Below are positions 23-9,365 of a stretch of DNA of 44,452 bases, piece by piece. The translations under genes were made by a program, and so were the position numbers. The stretch is from the IMG/VR virus record IMGVR_UViG_3300047317_000504, positions 1-44,452 of that record; one strand, given 5' to 3'. Below the pieces are notes generated by a model that was not told where the DNA came from, made no database searches, and worked only from the letters and a program-made list of their open reading frames with translations. The stretch comes from a virus. Numbering within the stretch: position 1 is the first letter of the stretch; the number at the start of each line of letters is the position of its first letter.

Positions 23-240
23 ATCTTCACCGCCTTTAATACCTTGTTCGCGATTGGTAATCCGATCATGAACGCGAGCACGACAACTAGTTTCGCGGCC
101 ATGTGCTCAGTCAGATAAATGTGTTGTGTGTGCCCGCGGTACGTCGTGCTCGCGATGATTATGTCCTGTGGCTTCGCGCGATGTACTTCGACGGGGCCTT
201 CGCCTTCGACGCGAGCGGCTTGTTTGAACAATGTCGTCAT
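19..240 (-). CDS. Small hypothetical protein upstream of the VapE-like helicase
   Basis: This is a 73-residue protein of unknown function. I chose the ATG at 240-238 over an in-frame start at 348 because the longer version would run deep into the divergent Ro60 gene and adds only low-complexity residues. An AGGG lies about eleven bases upstream. The C-terminal third (IYLTEHMAAKLVVVLAFMIG and following) is hydrophobic and probably helical; it could be one membrane segment but may equally be a buried or amphipathic helix. Its stop overlaps a GTG whose frame runs over the window end into the helicase gene, so the two are likely one operon. Its start overlaps the divergent Ro60 reading frame by ten bases. 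Confidence 0.6.
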   Translation of the reverse strand: MTTLFKQAARVEGEGPVEVHRAKPQDIIIASTTYRGHTQHIYLTEHMAAKLVVVLAFMIGLPIANKVLKAVKM

Positions 241-2030
241 GGGATCAGCGACCCTACGCGAAAAAGTACCACGCATGTAAGAGGGACTTGCGCATTTCGC
301 CACATTATCCCAGAGTTGGGACTGTGGACAATACCCTTTTACAGCCACGCGTCACACCCAACAAAGCAGGCGGTAGCGCGTACAGCTACTCAGCCAAAGA
401 ACAACTCGCCCAGTACGCCGCCACTGGCTTCTTCGGCAGTACTTACTATACGACGGCGACCGAACAGTTAGACGACGTCAAGAAACTATGTGAGCAGCTG
501 GACTCAAGATTCATTGCTCAAGCGGCCACGTACGCGCGTCAACAGGGCAAGCTCAAAGACATGCCAGCATATTTGCTCGCTGTGCTTGCCGCCCGCCAGG
601 CGCCCGAGTTCACGCGCGCGTTCGCCCACGTGATCGATAACGGCAAGATGCTCCGTAACTTCGTCCAAATTCTTCGGTCGGGGATTACCGGACGTAAGTC
701 TTTTGGCTCGCGCCCCCGTCGCGCGATCGAATCGTGGCTCAACAAGCGTCATCCGATGGCCCTCTTGCGCGATAGCATCGGTGAGACACCGAGCCTGTCA
801 TATATTATTCGCACGATCCGCCCCGACACGTTGAGCGAGACACAGCGGGCGATGTACGGGTACTTGATCGGCGACGAGACGAAGCTCTGCACGCCGCGCA
901 CGAAGACGGGCGAGATCGACAAGGTCATGCTCTGGGCGATCACTGAGCGGCAGAAGAAGCACGGTCTGCCGTACATCCTCGACGAGCACGCGGGCACGAT
1001 CGTCACGACCAAGTATGACGCGTCGAAGCTACCGGAAGAGGTCAAGCGCTACGAAGCGTGGAAGAAGACGCGCGAGGGGGTTGTGCCTGACGTGGACTTC
1101 CGCATGCTCGACTCGATGAACTTGTCCGACGACGAGTGGGCGGAGGTCGCGTCTCGAGCGTCGTGGACGATGACTATCAAGAACCTGAACACGTTTCGTC
1201 GTCACGGCGTGTTCTCGAGCGCAGCAATGGTCGAGCTCATCGCTGAGCGTCTCAGCAACAAAGAGCTGGTGCAGAAGGCCAAGACCTTCCCGTACCAGAT
1301 CATGAGCGCGTTTCGCGCAGTCTCGAGCTTGGCTGATGTAAAAGATCCGTGGCGCTTTTCGACTCCGACCGAGGGCGCGGACACGCCCCCATCCATCGTC
1401 GCTGCCCTCGAGCAAGCCATGGAGCACGCGCTCGAGAACGTGCCCTATCTCGACGGGAACGTTGCTCTGTGCCTCGACGTGTCCGGGTCGATGTCGAGTC
1501 CCATCACCGGCAACCGTCCCGGACAAACGACCAAGGTGCGCTACGTGGACGCAGCGGCGCTGTTCACGGCCGCGCTCGTGAAGCGCTCGAAAAAGAGCAT
1601 TGTCCTGCCCTTCGACACGCGCTGTTTCGTAGCCGAGGTTACAAAAGAAGCGAGCGTCATGAACTTCGCAACGCGCCTGGCCCAGCTCGGCGGCGGCGGA
1701 ACTCAGTGCGAGCTCCCGCTCATCGAGCTCAACAAGCGCAAGCTCAACCCCGACATCGTCATCTTCGTGAGCGATAACGAGTCGTGGGCGGGGCACTCGT
1801 ACTATCGCGATACAGGCATGATGGCTGAGTGGGCAAAGCTCAAGGCTCGCTCGCCTCGCTCTAAGCTCGTGTGCATCGACATCGCAGCGATGACGTCGAC
1901 ACAAGCAACCTCGAGCACTGACCGTTTGAACGTGGGCGGTTTCTCTGACGCTGTGTTCGATGTCGTCGCGAACTTTTTGTCGGGCGATGCCAAGAATTGG
2001 GTTGGCGTAATCGAAGCTGTGGAGCTATAA
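231..2030 (+). CDS. rsr: Ro60/TROVE-domain RNA-binding protein (bacterial Rsr type)
   Basis: Ro60 proteins are ring-shaped RNA-binding proteins that bind Y RNAs on the outer ring surface and misfolded RNA ends in the cavity; bacterial orthologues work with exoribonucleases such as PNPase. This protein has the normal family length (599 residues as an open frame). Residues ~45-370 are the alpha-helical TROVE/HEAT part, opening with the usual NKAGG and GSTYY motifs. Residues ~405-599 are a von Willebrand A domain with an intact MIDAS: DVSGSMS near 415, Thr in GGGGTQC near 491 and Asp in VSDNES near 515. The start is uncertain. ATG 231 lacks a ribosome binding site and overlaps a divergent gene; GTG 324 gives a length closer to other Rsr proteins. 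The six-unit Y RNA array begins two bases after its stop. Confidence 0.93.
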   Translation: MSSWDQRPYAKKYHACKRDLRISPHYPRVGTVDNTLLQPRVTPNKAGGSAYSYSAKEQLAQYAATGFFGSTYYTTATEQLDDVKKLCEQLDSRFIAQAATYARQQGKLKDMPAYLLAVLAARQAPEFTRAFAHVIDNGKMLRNFVQILRSGITGRKSFGSRPRRAIESWLNKRHPMALLRDSIGETPSLSYIIRTIRPDTLSETQRAMYGYLIGDETKLCTPRTKTGEIDKVMLWAITERQKKHGLPYILDEHAGTIVTTKYDASKLPEEVKRYEAWKKTREGVVPDVDFRMLDSMNLSDDEWAEVASRASWTMTIKNLNTFRRHGVFSSAAMVELIAERLSNKELVQKAKTFPYQIMSAFRAVSSLADVKDPWRFSTPTEGADTPPSIVAALEQAMEHALENVPYLDGNVALCLDVSGSMSSPITGNRPGQTTKVRYVDAAALFTAALVKRSKKSIVLPFDTRCFVAEVTKEASVMNFATRLAQLGGGGTQCELPLIELNKRKLNPDIVIFVSDNESWAGHSYYRDTGMMAEWAKLKARSPRSKLVCIDIAAMTSTQATSSTDRLNVGGFSDAVFDVVANFLSGDAKNWVGVIEAVEL

Positions 2031-2032
2031 GT

Positions 2033-2098
2033 ATCGTGTGACTGGCCGTTGATGCTGACAATCCGGTTGGTGTCGCTCATAGGCAGGCCAGTCACGAT
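2033..2098 (+). ncRNA. Y-RNA-like unit A (divergent, minimal)
   Basis: This is the first unit of the array, starting two bases after the Ro60 stop. Positions 2033-2047 pair with 2086-2098 as thirteen base pairs interrupted by a two-base TG bulge (2039-2040). Inside, 2056-2060 pairs with 2071-2075 and CC (2063-2064) with GG (2069-2070). It lacks the ACTACAT motif and any tRNA-like module. Because four T residues follow, it could instead be a weak terminator of the Ro60 gene; the bulged long stem and its place at the head of the array favour an array member. Confidence 0.55.
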
Positions 2099-2102
2099 TT
2101 TC

Positions 2103-2172
2103 GCTATCAGATACTGTTCGGCACTACATACATCCATCAAAAACAAGTGTCGGGCGCCTTCCTGCTGATAGC
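2103..2172 (+). ncRNA. Y-RNA-like unit B (minimal, no tRNA module)
   Basis: The outer stem pairs GCTATCAG (2103-2110) with CTGATAGC (2165-2172), eight perfect pairs. After an internal loop, the inner stem pairs TTCGGCAC (2117-2124) with GTGTCGGG (2147-2154) and can extend by two pairs. The strand between the inner helices begins TACAT, as in all later units, and is a 22-base loop with no tRNA-like sequence. The 3' internal loop ends in CTG directly before the outer stem, as in units C to F. Confidence 0.72.
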
Positions 2173-2183
2173 ACCCATTTTCA

Positions 2184-2252
2184 GTTACTAGATTTAGTTC
2201 GGGACTACATTTTTTGGAATTGTCAAGTCTCGAGCGTTTACCTGCTAGTAAC
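2184..2252 (+). ncRNA. Y-RNA-like unit C (minimal, no tRNA module)
   Basis: The outer stem pairs GTTACTAG (2184-2191) with CTAGTAAC (2245-2252), eight perfect pairs. The inner stem pairs TTCGGGAC (2198-2205) with GTCTCGAG (2227-2234), all eight positions paired including wobbles. The 21-base apical loop starts TACAT and has a T-run; no D-arm or T-arm sequence is present. The stem sequences differ from unit B while the pairing is kept, so this is covariation rather than simple copying. Confidence 0.74.
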
Positions 2253-2261
2253 GCTATTTCA

Positions 2262-2398
2262 GTCACCAGATCTAGTGGGCACTACATTGCCATTCACGCC
2301 GGAAGTCGTTGGTTCGAATCCAACCGGTGAGCTTTAAACTTGCCGTAGTTCAGCTGGATAGAACGCCGAAGTTGTGTCCACGTCTCTCTGCTGGTGAT
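2262..2398 (+). ncRNA. Y-RNA-like unit D with permuted tRNA-like module
   Basis: The outer stem is GTCACCAG (2262-2269) with CTGGTGAT (2391-2398); the inner stem is GTGGGCAC (2275-2282) with GTGTCCAC (2374-2381). Between them lies a tRNA-like module in permuted order: T arm 2308-2324 with loop TTCGAAT, acceptor 3' strand 2325-2331, a seven-base loop, acceptor 5' strand 2339-2345, D arm 2348-2364. The acceptor strands pair at all seven positions (two wobbles). CCG 2366-2368 pairs with CGG 2300-2302 as a short anticodon-like stem leading to the Ro-type stem. There is no anticodon loop and no CCA end. Known bacterial Y RNAs (YrlA class) have such a tRNA mimic joined to the Ro-binding stem. Confidence 0.85.
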
Positions 2399-2409
2399 GT
2401 TGTTTGTTC

Positions 2410-2545
2410 GTCACTGAATCTAGTGGGCACTACATAGGGAGCCGTCTGTCGCTGGTTCAAATCCAGCTACCCCGACTATTCAGGGGTATAGTTCAGCCTG
2501 GTAGAACAACAGCATTGAACGTGTCCACGCCTATCTGTCAGTGAC
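2410..2545 (+). ncRNA. Y-RNA-like unit E with permuted tRNA-like module
   Basis: The outer stem is GTCACTGA (2410-2417) with TCAGTGAC (2538-2545), eight Watson-Crick pairs. The inner stem is GTGGGCAC (2423-2430) with GTGTCCAC (2521-2528). The module has T arm 2451-2467 (loop TTCAAAT), acceptor 3' strand 2468-2474, loop 2475-2481, acceptor 5' strand 2482-2488 (six pairs plus an end mismatch) and D arm 2491-2507 with loop AGCCTGGTA. The anticodon-like stem can pair 2509-2513 with 2441-2445 with one A-C mismatch, or 2509-2512 with 2446-2449 perfectly. Confidence 0.85.
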
Positions 2546-2556
2546 TCTGTTTTCTC

Positions 2557-2695
2557 GCTACCGAATGTTAGTTGGCACTACATCCGCAGATAACGGGGTT
2601 GTCGCTGGTTCGAGTCCAGCTGTTCGTCCGAAAGTTCGAATATAGCTCAGTTGGTAGAGCACCTAAAAGTGTGTCAACGCTTCTCTGTCGGTAGT
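2557..2695 (+). ncRNA. Y-RNA-like unit F with permuted tRNA-like module
   Basis: The outer stem is GCTACCGA (2557-2564) with TCGGTAGT (2688-2695). The inner stem is GTTGGCAC (2571-2578) with GTGTCAAC (2671-2678); against units D and E, a G-C pair has become T-A on both strands. The module has T arm 2604-2620 (loop TTCGAGT), acceptor 3' strand 2621-2627, a loop of about eight bases, acceptor 5' strand 2636-2642 (six pairs, terminal T-T mismatch) and D arm 2645-2660 (GCTC/GAGC, loop AGTTGGTA). CCT 2662-2664 pairs with GGG 2596-2598. It is the last unit before the terminator. Confidence 0.85.
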
Positions 2696-2704
2696 TTTCT
2701 CTCT

Positions 2705-2739
2705 GGCTCGTGTAGTAAATACACGGGCCATTTTCTTTT
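2705..2739 (+). terminator. Rho-independent terminator of the Ro60/Y RNA transcript
   Basis: GGCTCGTGTA (2705-2714) pairs with TACACGGGCC (2720-2729) over ten positions with one wobble and a GTAAA loop, followed by ATTTTCTTTT. It closes the array and lies directly against the ATG at 2740, so any transcript of the next gene that passes it would carry this hairpin at its start codon. Confidence 0.85.
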
Positions 2740-2931
2740 ATGCCAAAAGTCACACGCGCCACAACCCCCGAACAAAAAGCCGAAGTACTCAAGCGCTTGC
2801 TAAAAGCATGGGAACAGCACCCGAAGCAACGCCTCGGGCAGTTCTTATGGAACGCGAACACGCAATCGAATCAGGCGGACTTGTTCTACGTCGAGGATTA
2901 TGAGTTACTCGAGGCAGCCGAGGAGTTCTGA
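2740..2931 (+). CDS. Small acidic/helical phage protein, function unknown
   Basis: This is a 63-residue protein. Two helical stretches (QKAEVLKRLLKAWEQHP and QRLGQFLWNA) are followed by LFYVEDYELLEAAEEF. It resembles short hypothetical proteins found in many tailed phages, where a basic amphipathic helix and an acidic tail are usual; I know no function. No Shine-Dalgarno sequence is visible, because the ATG directly follows the T-run of the terminator. That suggests low or conditional expression. Its TGA overlaps a CTG that probably starts the next gene (CTGA). Confidence 0.72.
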   Translation: MPKVTRATTPEQKAEVLKRLLKAWEQHPKQRLGQFLWNANTQSNQADLFYVEDYELLEAAEEF

Positions 2932-3914: not shown

Positions 3915-3996
3915 CCTCGCTCACGATGCACAGCAGCGGCCCCCACGTGCTCTGTGCCGGGTCGAGCTGAATCACGTCGTTGACTTGAACGTTCAT
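3751..3996 (-). CDS. Small SH3-like hypothetical protein
   Basis: The 81 residues alternate polar and hydrophobic positions like a small beta barrel (VNDVIQLDP, WGPLLCIVSEVKSWGVQCY, YVYIGRVEW), a pattern of KOW/SH3-type folds in short phage proteins. The ATG at 3996 overlaps the stop of the amidase-like gene (ATGA). It is the last gene of the long leftward operon and overlaps the tail of the convergent HNH gene by 164 bases. Function unknown. Confidence 0.65.
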   Translation of the reverse strand: MNVQVNDVIQLDPAQSTWGPLLCIVSEVKSWGVQCYALVPEQRDKLPGCMYLRVEHGKYVYIGRVEWAVATREDSSDPESS

Positions 3997-4415
3997 GGGC
4001 CGACTATATCAAGGCCCGAGAACCGCGCAACTACCTCATCAAGCTTCGCGAGCTGAGCCTTCGTGAACGCGTGCCAGTACCGGTACCCGCCGTTCTGCTC
4101 GTCGCGGACTTCGTTGAAAGGGACCTCGTTGCCATAAAGAGCGCTATAAAACTTTCCCTCGCGCAGCACGAGCGGCCCCCACGACACTAGCCCAATCGCG
4201 ATACTGTCTCGGTTGTGAATGCCCGACCACGCGCATCGGTTCAACGGAACGAGCTGGGCGAGCTCGCCCGCCCGCCCGATGAGATAGTGCGCGCTCACCT
4301 TGCTCTTCTTGTCGCAGAACCATGCGCGCGTCTTGTCGAAGTCCCCGCTCTTGGTCGAACGAACGACGATACGTTTCGGGTCGCGGAGGAAGCCAGAGAA
4401 ATTCGGAGAAAACAT
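3993..4415 (-). CDS. N-acetylmuramoyl-L-alanine amidase-like protein, probably inactive
   Basis: The 140 residues follow the amidase_2 (PGRP/T7 lysozyme) fold: IVVRST where active enzymes have a VVH-type zinc ligand, VSAHYLIGRAGELAQLVP, CAWSG where AWHAG is usual, and SIAIGLVSWG. The protein stops at LDIVGP, where the family continues IVGH and the final ligand. All three usual zinc positions are therefore missing or replaced (R, S, truncated). Known active amidases need these ligands to cleave the Ala-MurNAc amide, so I infer a binding protein or decaying lysin rather than a working endolysin. It overlaps the next gene by ATGA. Confidence 0.65.
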   Translation of the reverse strand: MFSPNFSGFLRDPKRIVVRSTKSGDFDKTRAWFCDKKSKVSAHYLIGRAGELAQLVPLNRCAWSGIHNRDSIAIGLVSWGPLVLREGKFYSALYGNEVPFNEVRDEQNGGYRYWHAFTKAQLAKLDEVVARFSGLDIVGP

Positions 4416-6534: not shown

Positions 6535-9365
6535 TGAAACATGCTCTTAGCTTTACCAAGCACATTATACCATGTATCCATAAGCTGTGTTTTCATGTCG
6601 TCGTTAGCCTTCTGCTCAACAGCAGCTTTCGGCGCACCGGGGTTTTCCTGCGCAGCCTTTGCGACCTCGGGATGATCGTTGCCTGTCCAACCGAGACCGG
6701 CACCCATGCGCGCTAGATCGCTACCAGCACGCGCCGCTGTTCCAGCACCCTCGAGTCCTTGCCCGAGTGCGTATTGCGAGTTCACGCCCAACAGACCGCG
6801 GCCAATAGCTGCAGTGCCTTTCAGCCCACCCCCGAGAATGCTCTCATTGCCCTGAATCGTGCTTGGTGTCTGAAAGTCTCGATTCGTGCGCCCTGCGAGG
6901 TTCTTGTTGACGTCCGCGACGGTGCTAAACGTCTTGTTCGCTTGACGTAGATCGGCGACGTCAGCGGGGCTCGCAGCGCCGTTATCGAAGGCGTCTGTGA
7001 CAGCGTCACCCATGCCCTTCCACGCTTCGACGTTCGCAGCGTTCACGTCGTTCTCGCGTTGCCCGAGCTGGCGCCCGTCAAAGTTCGCAATGCGATTGCC
7101 GAGTGTGCGGCGCGTGTGCATCGCTTCCTCGAGCGGATACGGGGCGGGGGCCGCGGGAGTCATGGGGCGCGGCGTTTGCGGGAAGAACCCGTTGTCGATC
7201 GGCGCGCTCGTGGGCGAGATACCCGAGATATCGAGGGGCTCAGCCGTGCCAGGCGCGAGGCTACTAGTCGTCGGACGCGGGCCGACTAACTTAGACAGTT
7301 CGTTGCGTTGTACAGGCCCAACGATAGGCGCGCGGCGAGACATGCCGAGAGGCGCGAGCTCGCCGGGTACATTGGGCGGCTGATCTGGATACAGCGCGGG
7401 CACTGGCTCAGACTCGGGCAGTGCACGTTCATTAAGCCCCGCTTTATATTCGTTCGGAACGTCGAGCCCTGGAGGCGGCGAGTTGCCTTGGAACCGGGGC
7501 GTGGGCTCTGTGACCGTCTGCTTGGCAGGAGGCAGCCCGGCCTCTTGTGGGGGCACTGGCGGCTCGTTACGAGACATCTCGTAAGGGTGCGGCCAATAGG
7601 ACGTGTCGACAGGCTCAGTGCCCTGTGGGAACGTCTCAGGCGCGTCGTGGATAGACACGGGCTTACCCGCTCCCCATCGCTGCGACGGCAAGATGTCCAT
7701 CTGCTCGCCCAGTCCGCTCAGTAGATTCAAGTCAGGCGTTTGCACGCCAGGCGCATTGGCATTCAAATCTGGTACGCCAGACTCGAGCCGTTGCATCCGC
7801 CGCTGATGGTGCCCACCGAGAGGCACAGTCTCGCCTCCCGGAGTCATAGGCACGTCGCGTAGTTCACTGCCAACTTGATTGAGCAAATCTTCGCGCGCTG
7901 GCACATCGATCGGTGCGCCCCGTCCCGGATACGGGCGAGGCTCAGGCGCGCTCGACATAAGATCTTCGTACGGGCTCGGCGACATGTTCGCAGTACCCGC
8001 GCCTGCGTCCCTTGCTGGGTTGCGAGGCGTGCCTCGGAACTCAAGATCGAGAATCGGCTGTTTGCTTACTTCGGGTGTGCTTGCTCGATACGTGTTCGCG
8101 AGATGTGAGGTCGTGTCGATCTCGCCAGGCGGGCCAGGCGGCGGGACATCTAACAGGTTGTCGCCGTGAAACTCAGATGGCGGCGGCGCGTTCGACTCAA
8201 TCGGGCCAGTAGGCTCGCTCGAGAGTGCGCTAGGATCGGGCGGTTGCTCGGGCATGCGTGACTCGAGCGGAAGCTGACTCACGGGCGGCTCAGACATGTC
8301 AGGCGCGCGTGACTCAAGGCCCTCGAGCGGTGTGATCTCTGGCTCGCCTGGCGCCGACTTTGAATACGGCGTAGTAACTCGATTCGCGACCTGGCGATAA
8401 CGCTTGGCCGCGTCGGGGACTTTGCCTCGCTCGAGTTCCGTTGCTTTGCCGTACAGGCGCGCGCGCACGGGATCCATGTTCACGCCCGCGTCGCCCACTG
8501 TCACGGGCGACATCTCGCCGTTCACGGGAGGTGAGAGCTCGCCTGTGGGCGTGCTGAGAATACGCTTCGTCGCAGCGGCTGCTTGCTCGTTGGCTTGGTC
8601 AAGAATGCCACGCGAATTCTCGCTCAGCGTGTTGGGCGATACACCGAACAAGTCCCTAACACCGCGAGGGCGAGTGAGGCCCATGTCGCGCAGTTCTTGT
8701 CCTGCGTTCACTACGCCCGCGCCACCTTCATTCGCACGGATCTTGGTGAGATCAGCGGGCGGGTACGCGCGCTCAGCGAGCTTGCGGTTTGCTGCGCCTT
8801 TAGCTGCACCGCCCATAGCACCAAGGCCCGCCCCGAGACCCTCGAGCCCGAGTGCTGCACTGCCCGCGACACCTGCACCTGTTAGTGCACGCTCACCGGC
8901 CTCGGGTAAGCTCGCGCCGCTAGCGAGTGCGTCTGCACCTTCGACGGTGCCGCCTGCGAGTGCACCGAGACCAGCACGCGCTGCGGGCGCACCGAACTTG
9001 CCGAGTGCGCCGACTTCCGGCCCACCGAGCAACATCCCAGCGCCAGGCCCGAGCTCGCGCGTGACGATACTCGCGGGATGCTGGAACGTGTTGGTGATCT
9101 GGTGCGCGGCTTGTTCTTGCTCGCGCTTGTTGTTAGCTTCGAAATCTTGACGCTCGAGAGGCGTCGGGTTCGTGTACTGAGACCAGAAATCGTACCAAGG
9201 ACGTTCAACGTGACCTGAGTCGTTGTGACTCACACGCTTCTCCGACTCAGCACGCGACTTCGCGATCAAGTCGTCGAACTCATCGCCCGTCGCTTTTGCA
9301 CCGTCACCTACGGTCTGCTTCGCTTTTGCGATTAACGCGTCGAACTCATCGGGTTCGGGAGGCAT
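6531..9365 (-). CDS. Large internal virion (ejection-type) protein
   Basis: The 944-residue protein begins with two repeats of an acidic motif (PDEFDALIAKAKQ, GDEFDDLIAKSRA). Residues ~100-200 form a long Gly/Ala-rich hydrophobic segment suited to membrane insertion. A very proline-rich central region (~300-680) follows, then a helical Gly/Ala-rich C-terminus. Podoviruses carry such proteins inside the capsid and eject them to form a DNA channel across the cell envelope. The order adaptor, nozzle and three long genes supports this. There is no transglycosylase motif that I can see. The assignment is by composition and position. Confidence 0.6.
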   Translation of the reverse strand: MPPEPDEFDALIAKAKQTVGDGAKATGDEFDDLIAKSRAESEKRVSHNDSGHVERPWYDFWSQYTNPTPLERQDFEANNKREQEQAAHQITNTFQHPASIVTRELGPGAGMLLGGPEVGALGKFGAPAARAGLGALAGGTVEGADALASGASLPEAGERALTGAGVAGSAALGLEGLGAGLGAMGGAAKGAANRKLAERAYPPADLTKIRANEGGAGVVNAGQELRDMGLTRPRGVRDLFGVSPNTLSENSRGILDQANEQAAAATKRILSTPTGELSPPVNGEMSPVTVGDAGVNMDPVRARLYGKATELERGKVPDAAKRYRQVANRVTTPYSKSAPGEPEITPLEGLESRAPDMSEPPVSQLPLESRMPEQPPDPSALSSEPTGPIESNAPPPSEFHGDNLLDVPPPGPPGEIDTTSHLANTYRASTPEVSKQPILDLEFRGTPRNPARDAGAGTANMSPSPYEDLMSSAPEPRPYPGRGAPIDVPAREDLLNQVGSELRDVPMTPGGETVPLGGHHQRRMQRLESGVPDLNANAPGVQTPDLNLLSGLGEQMDILPSQRWGAGKPVSIHDAPETFPQGTEPVDTSYWPHPYEMSRNEPPVPPQEAGLPPAKQTVTEPTPRFQGNSPPPGLDVPNEYKAGLNERALPESEPVPALYPDQPPNVPGELAPLGMSRRAPIVGPVQRNELSKLVGPRPTTSSLAPGTAEPLDISGISPTSAPIDNGFFPQTPRPMTPAAPAPYPLEEAMHTRRTLGNRIANFDGRQLGQRENDVNAANVEAWKGMGDAVTDAFDNGAASPADVADLRQANKTFSTVADVNKNLAGRTNRDFQTPSTIQGNESILGGGLKGTAAIGRGLLGVNSQYALGQGLEGAGTAARAGSDLARMGAGLGWTGNDHPEVAKAAQENPGAPKAAVEQKANDDMKTQLMDTWYNVLGKAKSMFQ
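6564..6572 (-). promoter_or_regulatory. Extended -10 promoter candidate inside the end of the 944-residue gene
   Basis: On the leftward strand this reads TGGTATAAT, a TGn extension plus perfect TATAAT, 30 bases before GTG 6534. It would give the short genes at 6534-3751 their own transcript. Confidence 0.45.

What the first reader, a model, noticed from the sequence alone, without database searches (positions are those of the whole stretch)
231..2739. Phage Ro60 gene followed directly by an array of six Y-RNA-like units
Seen: a full-length TROVE/vWA protein with intact MIDAS, then from two bases after its stop six consecutive stem-loop units, ended by a strong terminator. Established: Ro60 binds Y RNAs, and bacterial rsr genes usually have one or two Y RNA genes nearby; Ro60/Y RNA pairs have, as I recall, been noted in a few mycobacteriophages. 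Inference: a tandem array of six on one transcript would be a phage-made multi-Y RNP, perhaps to redirect host RNases (PNPase), guard RNA after host shut-off, or act as a decoy for tRNA-modifying enzymes. I know of no described case with this many units.
Basis: partly seen in the sequence, partly recalled or inferred. Interest (0 to 1): 0.95.

Follow-up and report, generated by a model that had tools for sequence, protein, structure and literature searches.

The report
Phage Ro60 gene with Y-RNA array
A bacterial virus carries a gene for an RNA-binding ring protein followed by a row of five small RNAs built like those that grip such rings, three of them imitating transfer RNA, and related viruses carry similar rows in which the tRNA-imitating part is swapped, rearranged or mixed with real tRNA genes.

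Summary
Window 231-2030 encodes a full-length Ro60 (TROVE plus vWA, MIDAS intact; AlphaFold model matches solved Ro60s). Six stem-loops and a terminator follow, but five, not six, look like Y RNAs: two minimal (about 70 nt) and three tRNA-mimicking YrlA-type (about 137 nt). The first hairpin fails all Y tests. The three YrlA-type units match Rfam YrlA at E 3e-9 to 8e-9, below its curated cutoff.

"No case with this many" does not hold in nature: of 85 non-redundant viral Ro60 loci, 45 carry two or more Y units and 9 five or more by a stem descriptor (pooled with a covariance model: 50 and 14, maximum 9), all on the Ro60 strand. In several phages the Y RNAs sit between tRNA genes.

New here: the tRNA-like module is exchangeable. 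In a phage whose Ro60 is 94% identical, unit 3 keeps its Ro60-binding stem but carries a different circular permutation of tRNA; five phages share that isomer with covarying helices. I read the array as Ro60-bound adaptors presenting tRNA mimics to tRNA-acting enzymes. RNA identity is strong; function is inferred. New variant of a known kind.

The parts
231..2030 (+). Ro60 (TROVE + vWA, Rsr-like) gene, 599 codons; start codon uncertain (31 low-confidence N-terminal residues)
2033..2098 (+). hairpin 1: conserved stem-loop right after the Ro60 stop; not Y-like by any test
   Evidence: negative; also in L001 and L003
2103..2172 (+). minimal Y RNA 1 (Ro60-binding stem, YUACAU motif, short loop; no tRNA module)
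   Evidence: not reported by Rfam
2184..2252 (+). minimal Y RNA 2
   Evidence: not reported by Rfam
2262..2398 (+). YrlA-type Y RNA 3: Ro60-binding stem plus permuted tRNA-like module (T-arm 2308-2324, acceptor 3' strand 2325-2331, loop, acceptor 5' strand 2339-2345, D-arm 2348-2364)
2410..2545 (+). YrlA-type Y RNA 4 (permuted tRNA-like module)
2557..2695 (+). YrlA-type Y RNA 5 (permuted tRNA-like module)
2704..2740 (+). intrinsic terminator closing the array

Best explanation
Window 231-2740 is a phage Ro ribonucleoprotein operon. One transcript (inferred from the layout) carries the Ro60 mRNA and then five Y RNAs, and ends at one terminator. Cuts in the short linkers (T-rich in most of them) would release RNAs of about 70 nt (two) and about 137 nt (three); the cuts are inferred. 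Each Y RNA has the bacterial Ro60-binding stem (outer helix, asymmetric internal loop, inner helix, YUACAU). The two minimal ones most likely only occupy and regulate the ring. The three long ones carry a tRNA whose anticodon arm is replaced by the Ro60 stem and whose acceptor stem is closed by a loop, so they should be unable to be charged or to decode. They most likely act as interchangeable adaptors that present a tRNA mimic, and so bring tRNA-recognising host or phage enzymes (nucleases such as PNPase, repair or modification enzymes) to Ro60 or keep them from real tRNAs. Shown computationally: protein family, RNA folds, covariation, co-orientation, recurrence, module swapping. Inferred: co-transcription, Ro60 binding, processing, partner enzymes and benefit to the phage.
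For: Ro60: Pfam; AlphaFold pLDDT 86 whose 13 best PDB chains are Ro60 or TROVE structures, including the Thermus phage phiLo Ro60 dimer 9l5y. Y RNAs: Rfam YrlA on 3 units; descriptor and R1 agree on the same 5 units in the window (the three long units helped build R1, the two minimal ones did not). R1 on 682 kb and 499 kb, both strands: 148 and 96 hits, all on the Ro60 strand (31 of the 244 are partial hits, 28 of them at tRNA-tRNA junctions). Covariation. Recurrence beside Ro60. Adaptor reading: the Ro60-stem strands of unit 3 are 92% and 88% identical to L001 while the module is 46% identical with another topology; the alternative isomer covaries in five phages. Mixing with tRNA genes in relatives: 31 of 157 units have a tRNA within 12 nt, random placement mean 1.7, maximum 8 in 500 trials. 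RtcB and RlaP near some arrays. YrlA's tRNA-like domain is modified by DusA and TruB and binds PNPase per a review (PMC8394870, passages).
Against: No expression, binding or processing data; no promoter-like site stronger than chance was found (2 found, 1.4 expected). Rfam's curated YrlA cutoff is not reached in the window, and Rfam does not report the two minimal units. The best-covered named relative by Ro60, Myxococcus phage Mx1 (37.5%), shows no Y unit within 4 kb, and 33 of 85 viral loci have none by the descriptor, so Ro60 and a nearby array are not inseparable. RNA-repair genes are rare nearby: RtcB 2 and RlaP 1 of 100 ORFs scanned (which shows 25 of 38 matched families), and none among the 18 window proteins besides Ro60 scanned with Pfam. 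No partner enzyme is identified.
Confidence: 0.6

Rival explanations
1. RYPER-like degradation machine: the Y RNAs tether phage Ro60 to host PNPase (as reported for Deinococcus), and the array only raises Y RNA dose to speed decay of structured host RNA during takeover.
For: Established model for bacterial Rsr and Y RNA (PMC8394870 and PMC7790460, passages); proposed for Listeria phage CKA15, whose putative Rsr lies within 2 kbp of three highly transcribed regions (PMC12282133, passages).
Against: Dose alone does not explain why modules within an array differ (60-66% identity among the three in the window) or why a module is replaced by another isomer in a close relative, nor the association with tRNA genes in relatives.
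Confidence: 0.3
2. Anti-defence decoys: the modules are sacrificial tRNA look-alikes that occupy host tRNA-cleaving defence nucleases or toxins, Ro60 stabilising them.
For: Phage tRNA genes do counter tRNA-cleaving defence (Septu and tRNA-Tyr in T6; PMC13096335, abstract and section list); a competitive-inhibitor role for YrlA against an anticodon nuclease was suggested in PMC7790460 (passage). Module diversity and turnover and interleaving with tRNA genes in relatives fit an arms race.
Against: The window's modules lack an anticodon arm, so anticodon nucleases would have no cut site; isomer B keeps an anticodon-like hairpin. No defence target is known.
Confidence: 0.2
3. Redundant copies: tandem duplication produced extra Y genes with no separate role; only one or two matter.
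For: Units 3 and 4 share 88% of their 5' strand; copy number varies between relatives.
Against: The five units keep intact stems in two phages whose Ro60 genes are 92.6% identical; several units per locus are usual (45 of 85 viral loci by the descriptor; 10 of 10 bacterial loci with 2-4 each in the pooled count, though one of them, L060, has none by the descriptor alone).
Confidence: 0.12
4. The long units are circularly permuted tRNA genes processed into working tRNAs, as in some algae and archaea.
For: Order T-arm, acceptor 3', loop, acceptor 5', D-arm resembles that of permuted tRNA genes (recalled; PMC3978253 seen in a search listing only).
Against: No anticodon arm in the window's units; ARAGORN finds no tRNA; a conserved covarying Ro60 stem occupies its place.
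Confidence: 0.03
5. Not Y RNAs but decayed tRNA or attachment-site fragments left near the integrase.
For: The longer contig of the same phage has an integrase-like ORF upstream of Ro60 (Pfam Phage_integrase for the ORF at the like place in L008).
Against: Five regularly spaced Ro60-type stems, covariation and YrlA matches.
Confidence: 0.02

Closest known systems
Bacterial rsr-Y RNA loci (Deinococcus Rsr/Y RNA; Salmonella rsr-yrlBA-rtcBA)
   Same: Ro60 gene with Y RNAs on the same strand; minimal (YrlB-like) and tRNA-like (YrlA) members side by side. The locus in L006/L007 shows the same order: Ro60 gene, YrlB, YrlA, a third YrlA-like unit, then an ORF that I read as RtcB from memory.
   Different: Phage-borne; five units; no RtcB hit among the 18 window proteins besides Ro60 scanned with Pfam; module replaced in a close relative; Rfam score below the YrlA cutoff.
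YrlA (Rfam RF02553)
   Same: Full-length match 1-114 on three units, E 3e-9 to 7.6e-9: Ro60 stem, T-arm, acceptor-like stem, D-arm.
   Different: 45.9-47.3 bits against a gathering score of 69. Isomer B of relative L001 is not YrlA in order of arms.
Phage Ro60 proteins (actinobacteriophages; Thermus phage phiLo Ro60, PDB 9l5y)
   Same: Same protein family; 121 of 50,697 phage records match (at least two of them look like host DNA, L006/L007); the fold matches 9l5y. R1 finds 1-3 full-length units in 9 of the 12 further named-phage loci fetched, L069-L080.
   Different: 21.7-30.2% identity in 57 of the 60 rows listed; fewer Y units per locus; none found for phiLo, Phosso or Samisti12; the strict stem descriptor finds none in any of the 12.
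Circularly permuted tRNA genes
   Same: Similar order of tRNA parts in the long units (order recalled).
   Different: No anticodon arm; fused to a Ro60 stem; no sign of a mature tRNA.

Membership tests
Ro60/Rsr protein | TROVE (HEAT-ring) domain plus vWA domain | tested here: met
   Pfam TROVE 39.9 bits (cutoff 23) and vWA_Ro60 61.6 bits (cutoff 27.7); Foldseek best matches are Ro60s
Ro60/Rsr protein | intact MIDAS (DxSxS...T...D; recalled motif) | tested here: met
   D416, S418, S420, T491, D515 invariant in 40 sequences
Ro60/Rsr protein | binds Y RNA and misfolded RNA ends | not testable with these tools
   needs biochemistry
Bacterial Y RNA | Ro60-binding stem: two helices around an asymmetric internal loop, conserved (C/U)UAC after the inner helix | tested here: met
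   5 units in the window; hairpin 1 fails; covariation of the long units
Bacterial Y RNA | encoded near and on the strand of a Ro60 gene | tested here: met
   R1 hits on the Ro60 strand, 148 of 148 and 96 of 96
Bacterial Y RNA | bound by the cognate Ro60 in cells | not testable with these tools
   no RNA or protein data
YrlA (RF02553) | tRNA-like module with T-, D- and acceptor-like arms | tested here: met
   units 3-5; the two minimal units lack it
YrlA (RF02553) | Rfam gathering score of 69 bits | tested here: not met
   45.9-47.3 bits; hence filed as YrlA-type Y RNA, not as RF02553
YrlA (RF02553) | substrate of tRNA-modifying enzymes (DusA, TruB) | not testable with these tools
   needs modification assays
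Circularly permuted tRNA gene | complete tRNA including an anticodon arm | tested here: not met
   ARAGORN 0 genes in the window; no anticodon arm by inspection

The most novel reading that the evidence does not exclude
The Ro60-binding stem is a chassis into which phages plug tRNA circles opened at different points. Classical YrlA opens the tRNA at the anticodon (order T-arm, acceptor, D-arm). A second isomer, in five phages including a close relative of the window's phage where it stands in place of the classical module in the same slot, opens it between T-arm and acceptor (order acceptor, D-arm, anticodon-like arm, T-arm). The modules arise by recombination inside phage tRNA arrays: the classical module is formally the junction between two neighbouring tRNA genes (28 of 31 partial R1 hits are tRNA-tRNA junctions). 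Phages would thus keep exchangeable libraries of Ro60-bound tRNA mimics against tRNA-targeting host factors.
Probability: 0.3. Interest if true: 0.82.

Novelty: new variant of a known kind. Interest (0 to 1): 0.62.

Why it matters
Why bacteria and phages keep Ro60 with tRNA-like Y RNAs is an open question. Arrays of Y RNAs whose stem is kept while the tRNA-like part is replaced give natural variants for asking what that part recognises. Named phages with R1 units and a recorded host (Arthrobacter Atuin, Rhodococcus Trina, Gordonia VanLee, Neville and GMA2, Streptomyces Beuffert and Alone3) make it testable in laboratory hosts. Y units wedged between tRNA genes with 0-12 nt to spare suggest that tRNA maturation may also release Y RNAs, which would be a further processing route. 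The second permutation isomer, if confirmed, shows that the tRNA fold has been grafted onto the Ro60 stem in more than one way.

Tried and rejected
Six Y units: rejected; hairpin 1 fails Rfam, the descriptor and R1. Rfam at gathering threshold gave nothing in the window; E-value mode was needed, and even then the two minimal units are not reported. In the fold of the whole array unit 3 pairs otherwise than proposed, and in the centroid of unit 3 alone the inner helix is lost. Canonical tRNA nested in the Y stem: my first reading of the 'D>T' units; L092 and L093 showed that the acceptor-like helix forms with upstream sequence, so I changed it to a second permutation; L041:2116-2244 remains canonical in order, a single weak case (z -0.42). 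For L001 the plain MFE fold gave other pairings in the module, so its isomer-B fold rests on the comparison. MAFFT registered the isomer-B acceptor helix badly; the count uses an alignment fitted to R2's structure, which leans towards it; L092 and L093 were not used to build R2. R2 gave 89 and 48 hits at E 0.001; most look like ordinary tRNAs, as expected of a model that contains one, but I did not check them one by one.

The stem descriptor missed units that R1 or Rfam finds (such as L041:3267-3394), found nothing strict in the 12 named-phage loci L069-L080 or in Mx1, and at its lower threshold gave one extra hit inside a gene in L006. Four full-length R1 hits are tRNA-tRNA junctions and were left out of the unit counts. 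Of the other 209 full-length R1 hits in the two searches (raw rows, near-identical loci included), 137 coincide with a descriptor unit and 72 do not; these 72 enter the pooled counts without individual checks. One search pools 57 of the 85 loci (those with an R1 hit). The random-placement control spans whole loci, genes included, so it is generous to my claim. R1's 16 units were mostly chosen by pairing tests, so one search is not independent evidence; the Rfam YrlA hits in 5 of 7 other phage loci are (L011 and L018 gave none). The Pfam scan of neighbours took 100 ORFs picked by hand from 179 and shows 25 of 38 matched families.

Papers not held: Chen 2014, Sim 2020; Wang 2018 was seen only in a reference list. 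That Y arrays, the second isomer or Y RNAs inside tRNA arrays are unpublished is not shown: eight searches of open papers listed none by title, abstract start or the passages I opened, but the lists were capped (for example 20 of 344 and 10 of 184) and the key subscription papers are outside the library.


Full report
What is in the window. The window is an IMG/VR virus record of 44,452 bases. A longer contig with an identical Ro60 protein is 62,692 bases (L002/L009); the stretch held begins with an integrase-like ORF upstream of Ro60, and the ORF at the like place in L008 is Phage_integrase by Pfam. ORF 231-2030 is Ro60: Pfam TROVE and vWA_Ro60, sequence matches to Deinococcus Rsr, animal Ro60 and a 'TROVE domain-containing protein', and an AlphaFold model (pLDDT 86.3, pTM 0.85) whose 13 best PDB chains are Ro60 or TROVE structures, among them the Ro60 dimer of Thermus phage phiLo. 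The MIDAS residues are invariant in 40 sequences.

The array. Between the Ro60 stop and 2740 the + strand folds into six stem-loops and a terminator. Rfam finds YrlA three times, E 3e-9 to 7.6e-9, 45.9-47.3 bits, below the curated cutoff of 69; it does not report the two minimal units. A descriptor of the Ro60-binding stem, written from these units and checked on the YrlB/YrlA pair in L006, finds five units in 1900-2900 and no more in the first 12 kb. A covariance model R1, built from 16 long units, finds the same five and nothing else in the whole window; the three long units are in the model, the two minimal ones are not. Hairpin 1 is rejected by all three. In each long unit the order is T-arm, acceptor 3' strand, short loop, acceptor 5' strand, D-arm, with the Ro60 stem where the anticodon arm would be.

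Is it more than chance? On 85 non-redundant viral loci (839 kb, each cut at 12 kb; 91 before removing near-identical Ro60 genes) the descriptor finds 157 units on the Ro60 strand and none on the opposite strand; shuffles of 45 viral loci, three times each, gave none. R1 gave 148 and 96 hits, all on the Ro60 strand. On alignment A4, 94.4% of cells pair, 26 of 31 pairs show changes on both sides and the covariation score is 0.721 against 0.227 in shuffles and 0.11-0.19 when slid. Because most of those units were picked by pairing, I weigh more the independent Rfam YrlA hits in five of the seven other phage loci scanned: L026, L033, L038, L041, L057, not L011 or L018.

How common. By the descriptor 52 of 85 viral loci have at least one unit, 45 two or more, 28 three or more, 9 five or more, maximum eight. 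Pooled with full-length R1 hits that are not tRNA junctions the figures are 55, 50, 40 and 14 of 85, maximum nine in L115 (57 loci pooled; R1-only hits not checked one by one). Ten bacterial loci hold 2-4 units each in the pooled count, 0-4 by the descriptor alone. Of 12 further named-phage loci, nine hold 1-3 R1 units and three none (L071 Samisti12, L076 Phosso, L078 phiLo); the strict descriptor finds none in any of them. Mx1 has none by either. So several Y units per locus are ordinary for this Ro60 group, and five is at the upper end rather than unique.

Mixing with tRNA genes. The window has no tRNA gene. But L003 carries a tRNA-Met inside the same array, and in several phages Y units alternate with tRNA genes: in L041 (35 ARAGORN calls, one of them inside a Y unit) five of six descriptor units start directly after a tRNA and all six end 3-5 nt before the next. 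Over all loci 31 of 157 units lie within 12 nt of a tRNA, 13 on both sides; random placement gives a mean of 1.7 and at most 8 in 500 trials. Inference: there, tRNA end maturation could also free the Y RNAs.

Module exchange and a second permutation. Window and L001 share 92.6% of Ro60 nucleotides. Hairpin 1 and minimal Y 2 are identical, minimal Y 1 is 90%; units 4 and 5 keep 93-100% of their stem strands and 85-88% of their modules. Unit 3 keeps 92% and 88% of its stem strands but only 46% of its module. The L001 module runs acceptor-like hairpin, D-arm, anticodon-like hairpin, T-arm. A model R2 from L001, L018 and L137 found two more, L092 and L093, shortly downstream of Ro60. Across the five, 91.0% of cells pair, 23 of 39 pairs change on both sides, score 0.554 against 0.246 (alignment fitted to the model). 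ARAGORN reads L018 and L137 as tRNA-Ile, L092 as tRNA-Phe and L001 and L093 as undetermined. I read this as tRNA opened at the T-arm/acceptor junction instead of the anticodon.

Where modules may come from. Of 31 partial R1 hits, 28 are junctions of adjacent tRNA genes, and four full-length hits are such junctions too, including Met-Met and Arg-Arg neighbours. The classical module is thus formally a tRNA-tRNA junction; that it arose so is inference.

Mechanism. Co-transcription, Ro60 binding, cleavage in the linkers, and partners are inferred. Published roles of bacterial Y RNA are tethering PNPase and tRNA mimicry (PMC8394870, passages; PMC7790460, passages). Phage Ro60 with Y RNA has been suggested for a Listeria phage (PMC12282133, passages), and a subset of jumbo phages is noted to have a TROVE protein in an RNA-repair context (PMC7824862, passages). 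I recall, without having read it here, that Chen et al. 2014 report Y RNAs near Ro60 in more than 250 bacterial and phage species. RtcB (2) and RlaP (1) occur among 100 of the 179 neighbour ORFs listed. I favour interchangeable adaptors: Ro60 stem constant, tRNA mimic variable.

Verdict. Real, correctly spotted, slightly over-counted, and not alone. A new variant of a known kind; the exchangeable modules and the second isomer are the surprising part.

Noticed in passing
L073:3854-3991, L079:3364-3489, L070:3832-3970 and 4047-4179, L080:3932-4077: R1 Y-RNA hits beside Ro60 in named phages overlap features annotated as tRNA (tRNA-Arg in VanLee, tRNA-Thr in prophiGD43A-5, tRNA-OTHER in Trina, tRNA-Ser in Alone3): possible misannotation of Y RNAs as tRNAs.
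   Followed up: partly
L006, L007: Two GenBank 'phage' records (Escherichia phage ECO95 1-6-1, Salmonella phage S.Kent 1-2-1) look like host DNA: Ro60 gene, YrlB, YrlA, a third weaker YrlA-like unit, then an ORF that I read as RtcB from memory.
   Followed up: partly
L075:6695-7106 and 7416-7472: Gordonia phage GMA2 has a tmRNA, then an R1/YrlA hit (7117-7242), then a Pistol ribozyme just after the first gene (7341-7412) of its tRNA array.
   Followed up: no
L018:6575-6989, L051:7161-7569: tmRNA genes close beside Y RNA units in two viral contigs.
   Followed up: no
L033:3336-3485, L041:3048-3190: Long Y units that seem to keep a T-arm/D-arm module plus an extra anticodon-like hairpin.
   Followed up: no
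L022:2824-2896, L045:2599-2672: ARAGORN tRNA-Pyl-like genes with a CTA anticodon upstream of Ro60.
   Followed up: no
window 3993-4415 (-): Amidase_2 (endolysin-like) gene about 1.2 kb beyond the array.
   Followed up: no
window 2033-2098: Hairpin 1: strongly conserved stem-loop after the Ro60 stop, with changed but paired positions in L003; may be a degenerate Y RNA, an mRNA 3'-end guard or a nuclease site.
   Followed up: partly
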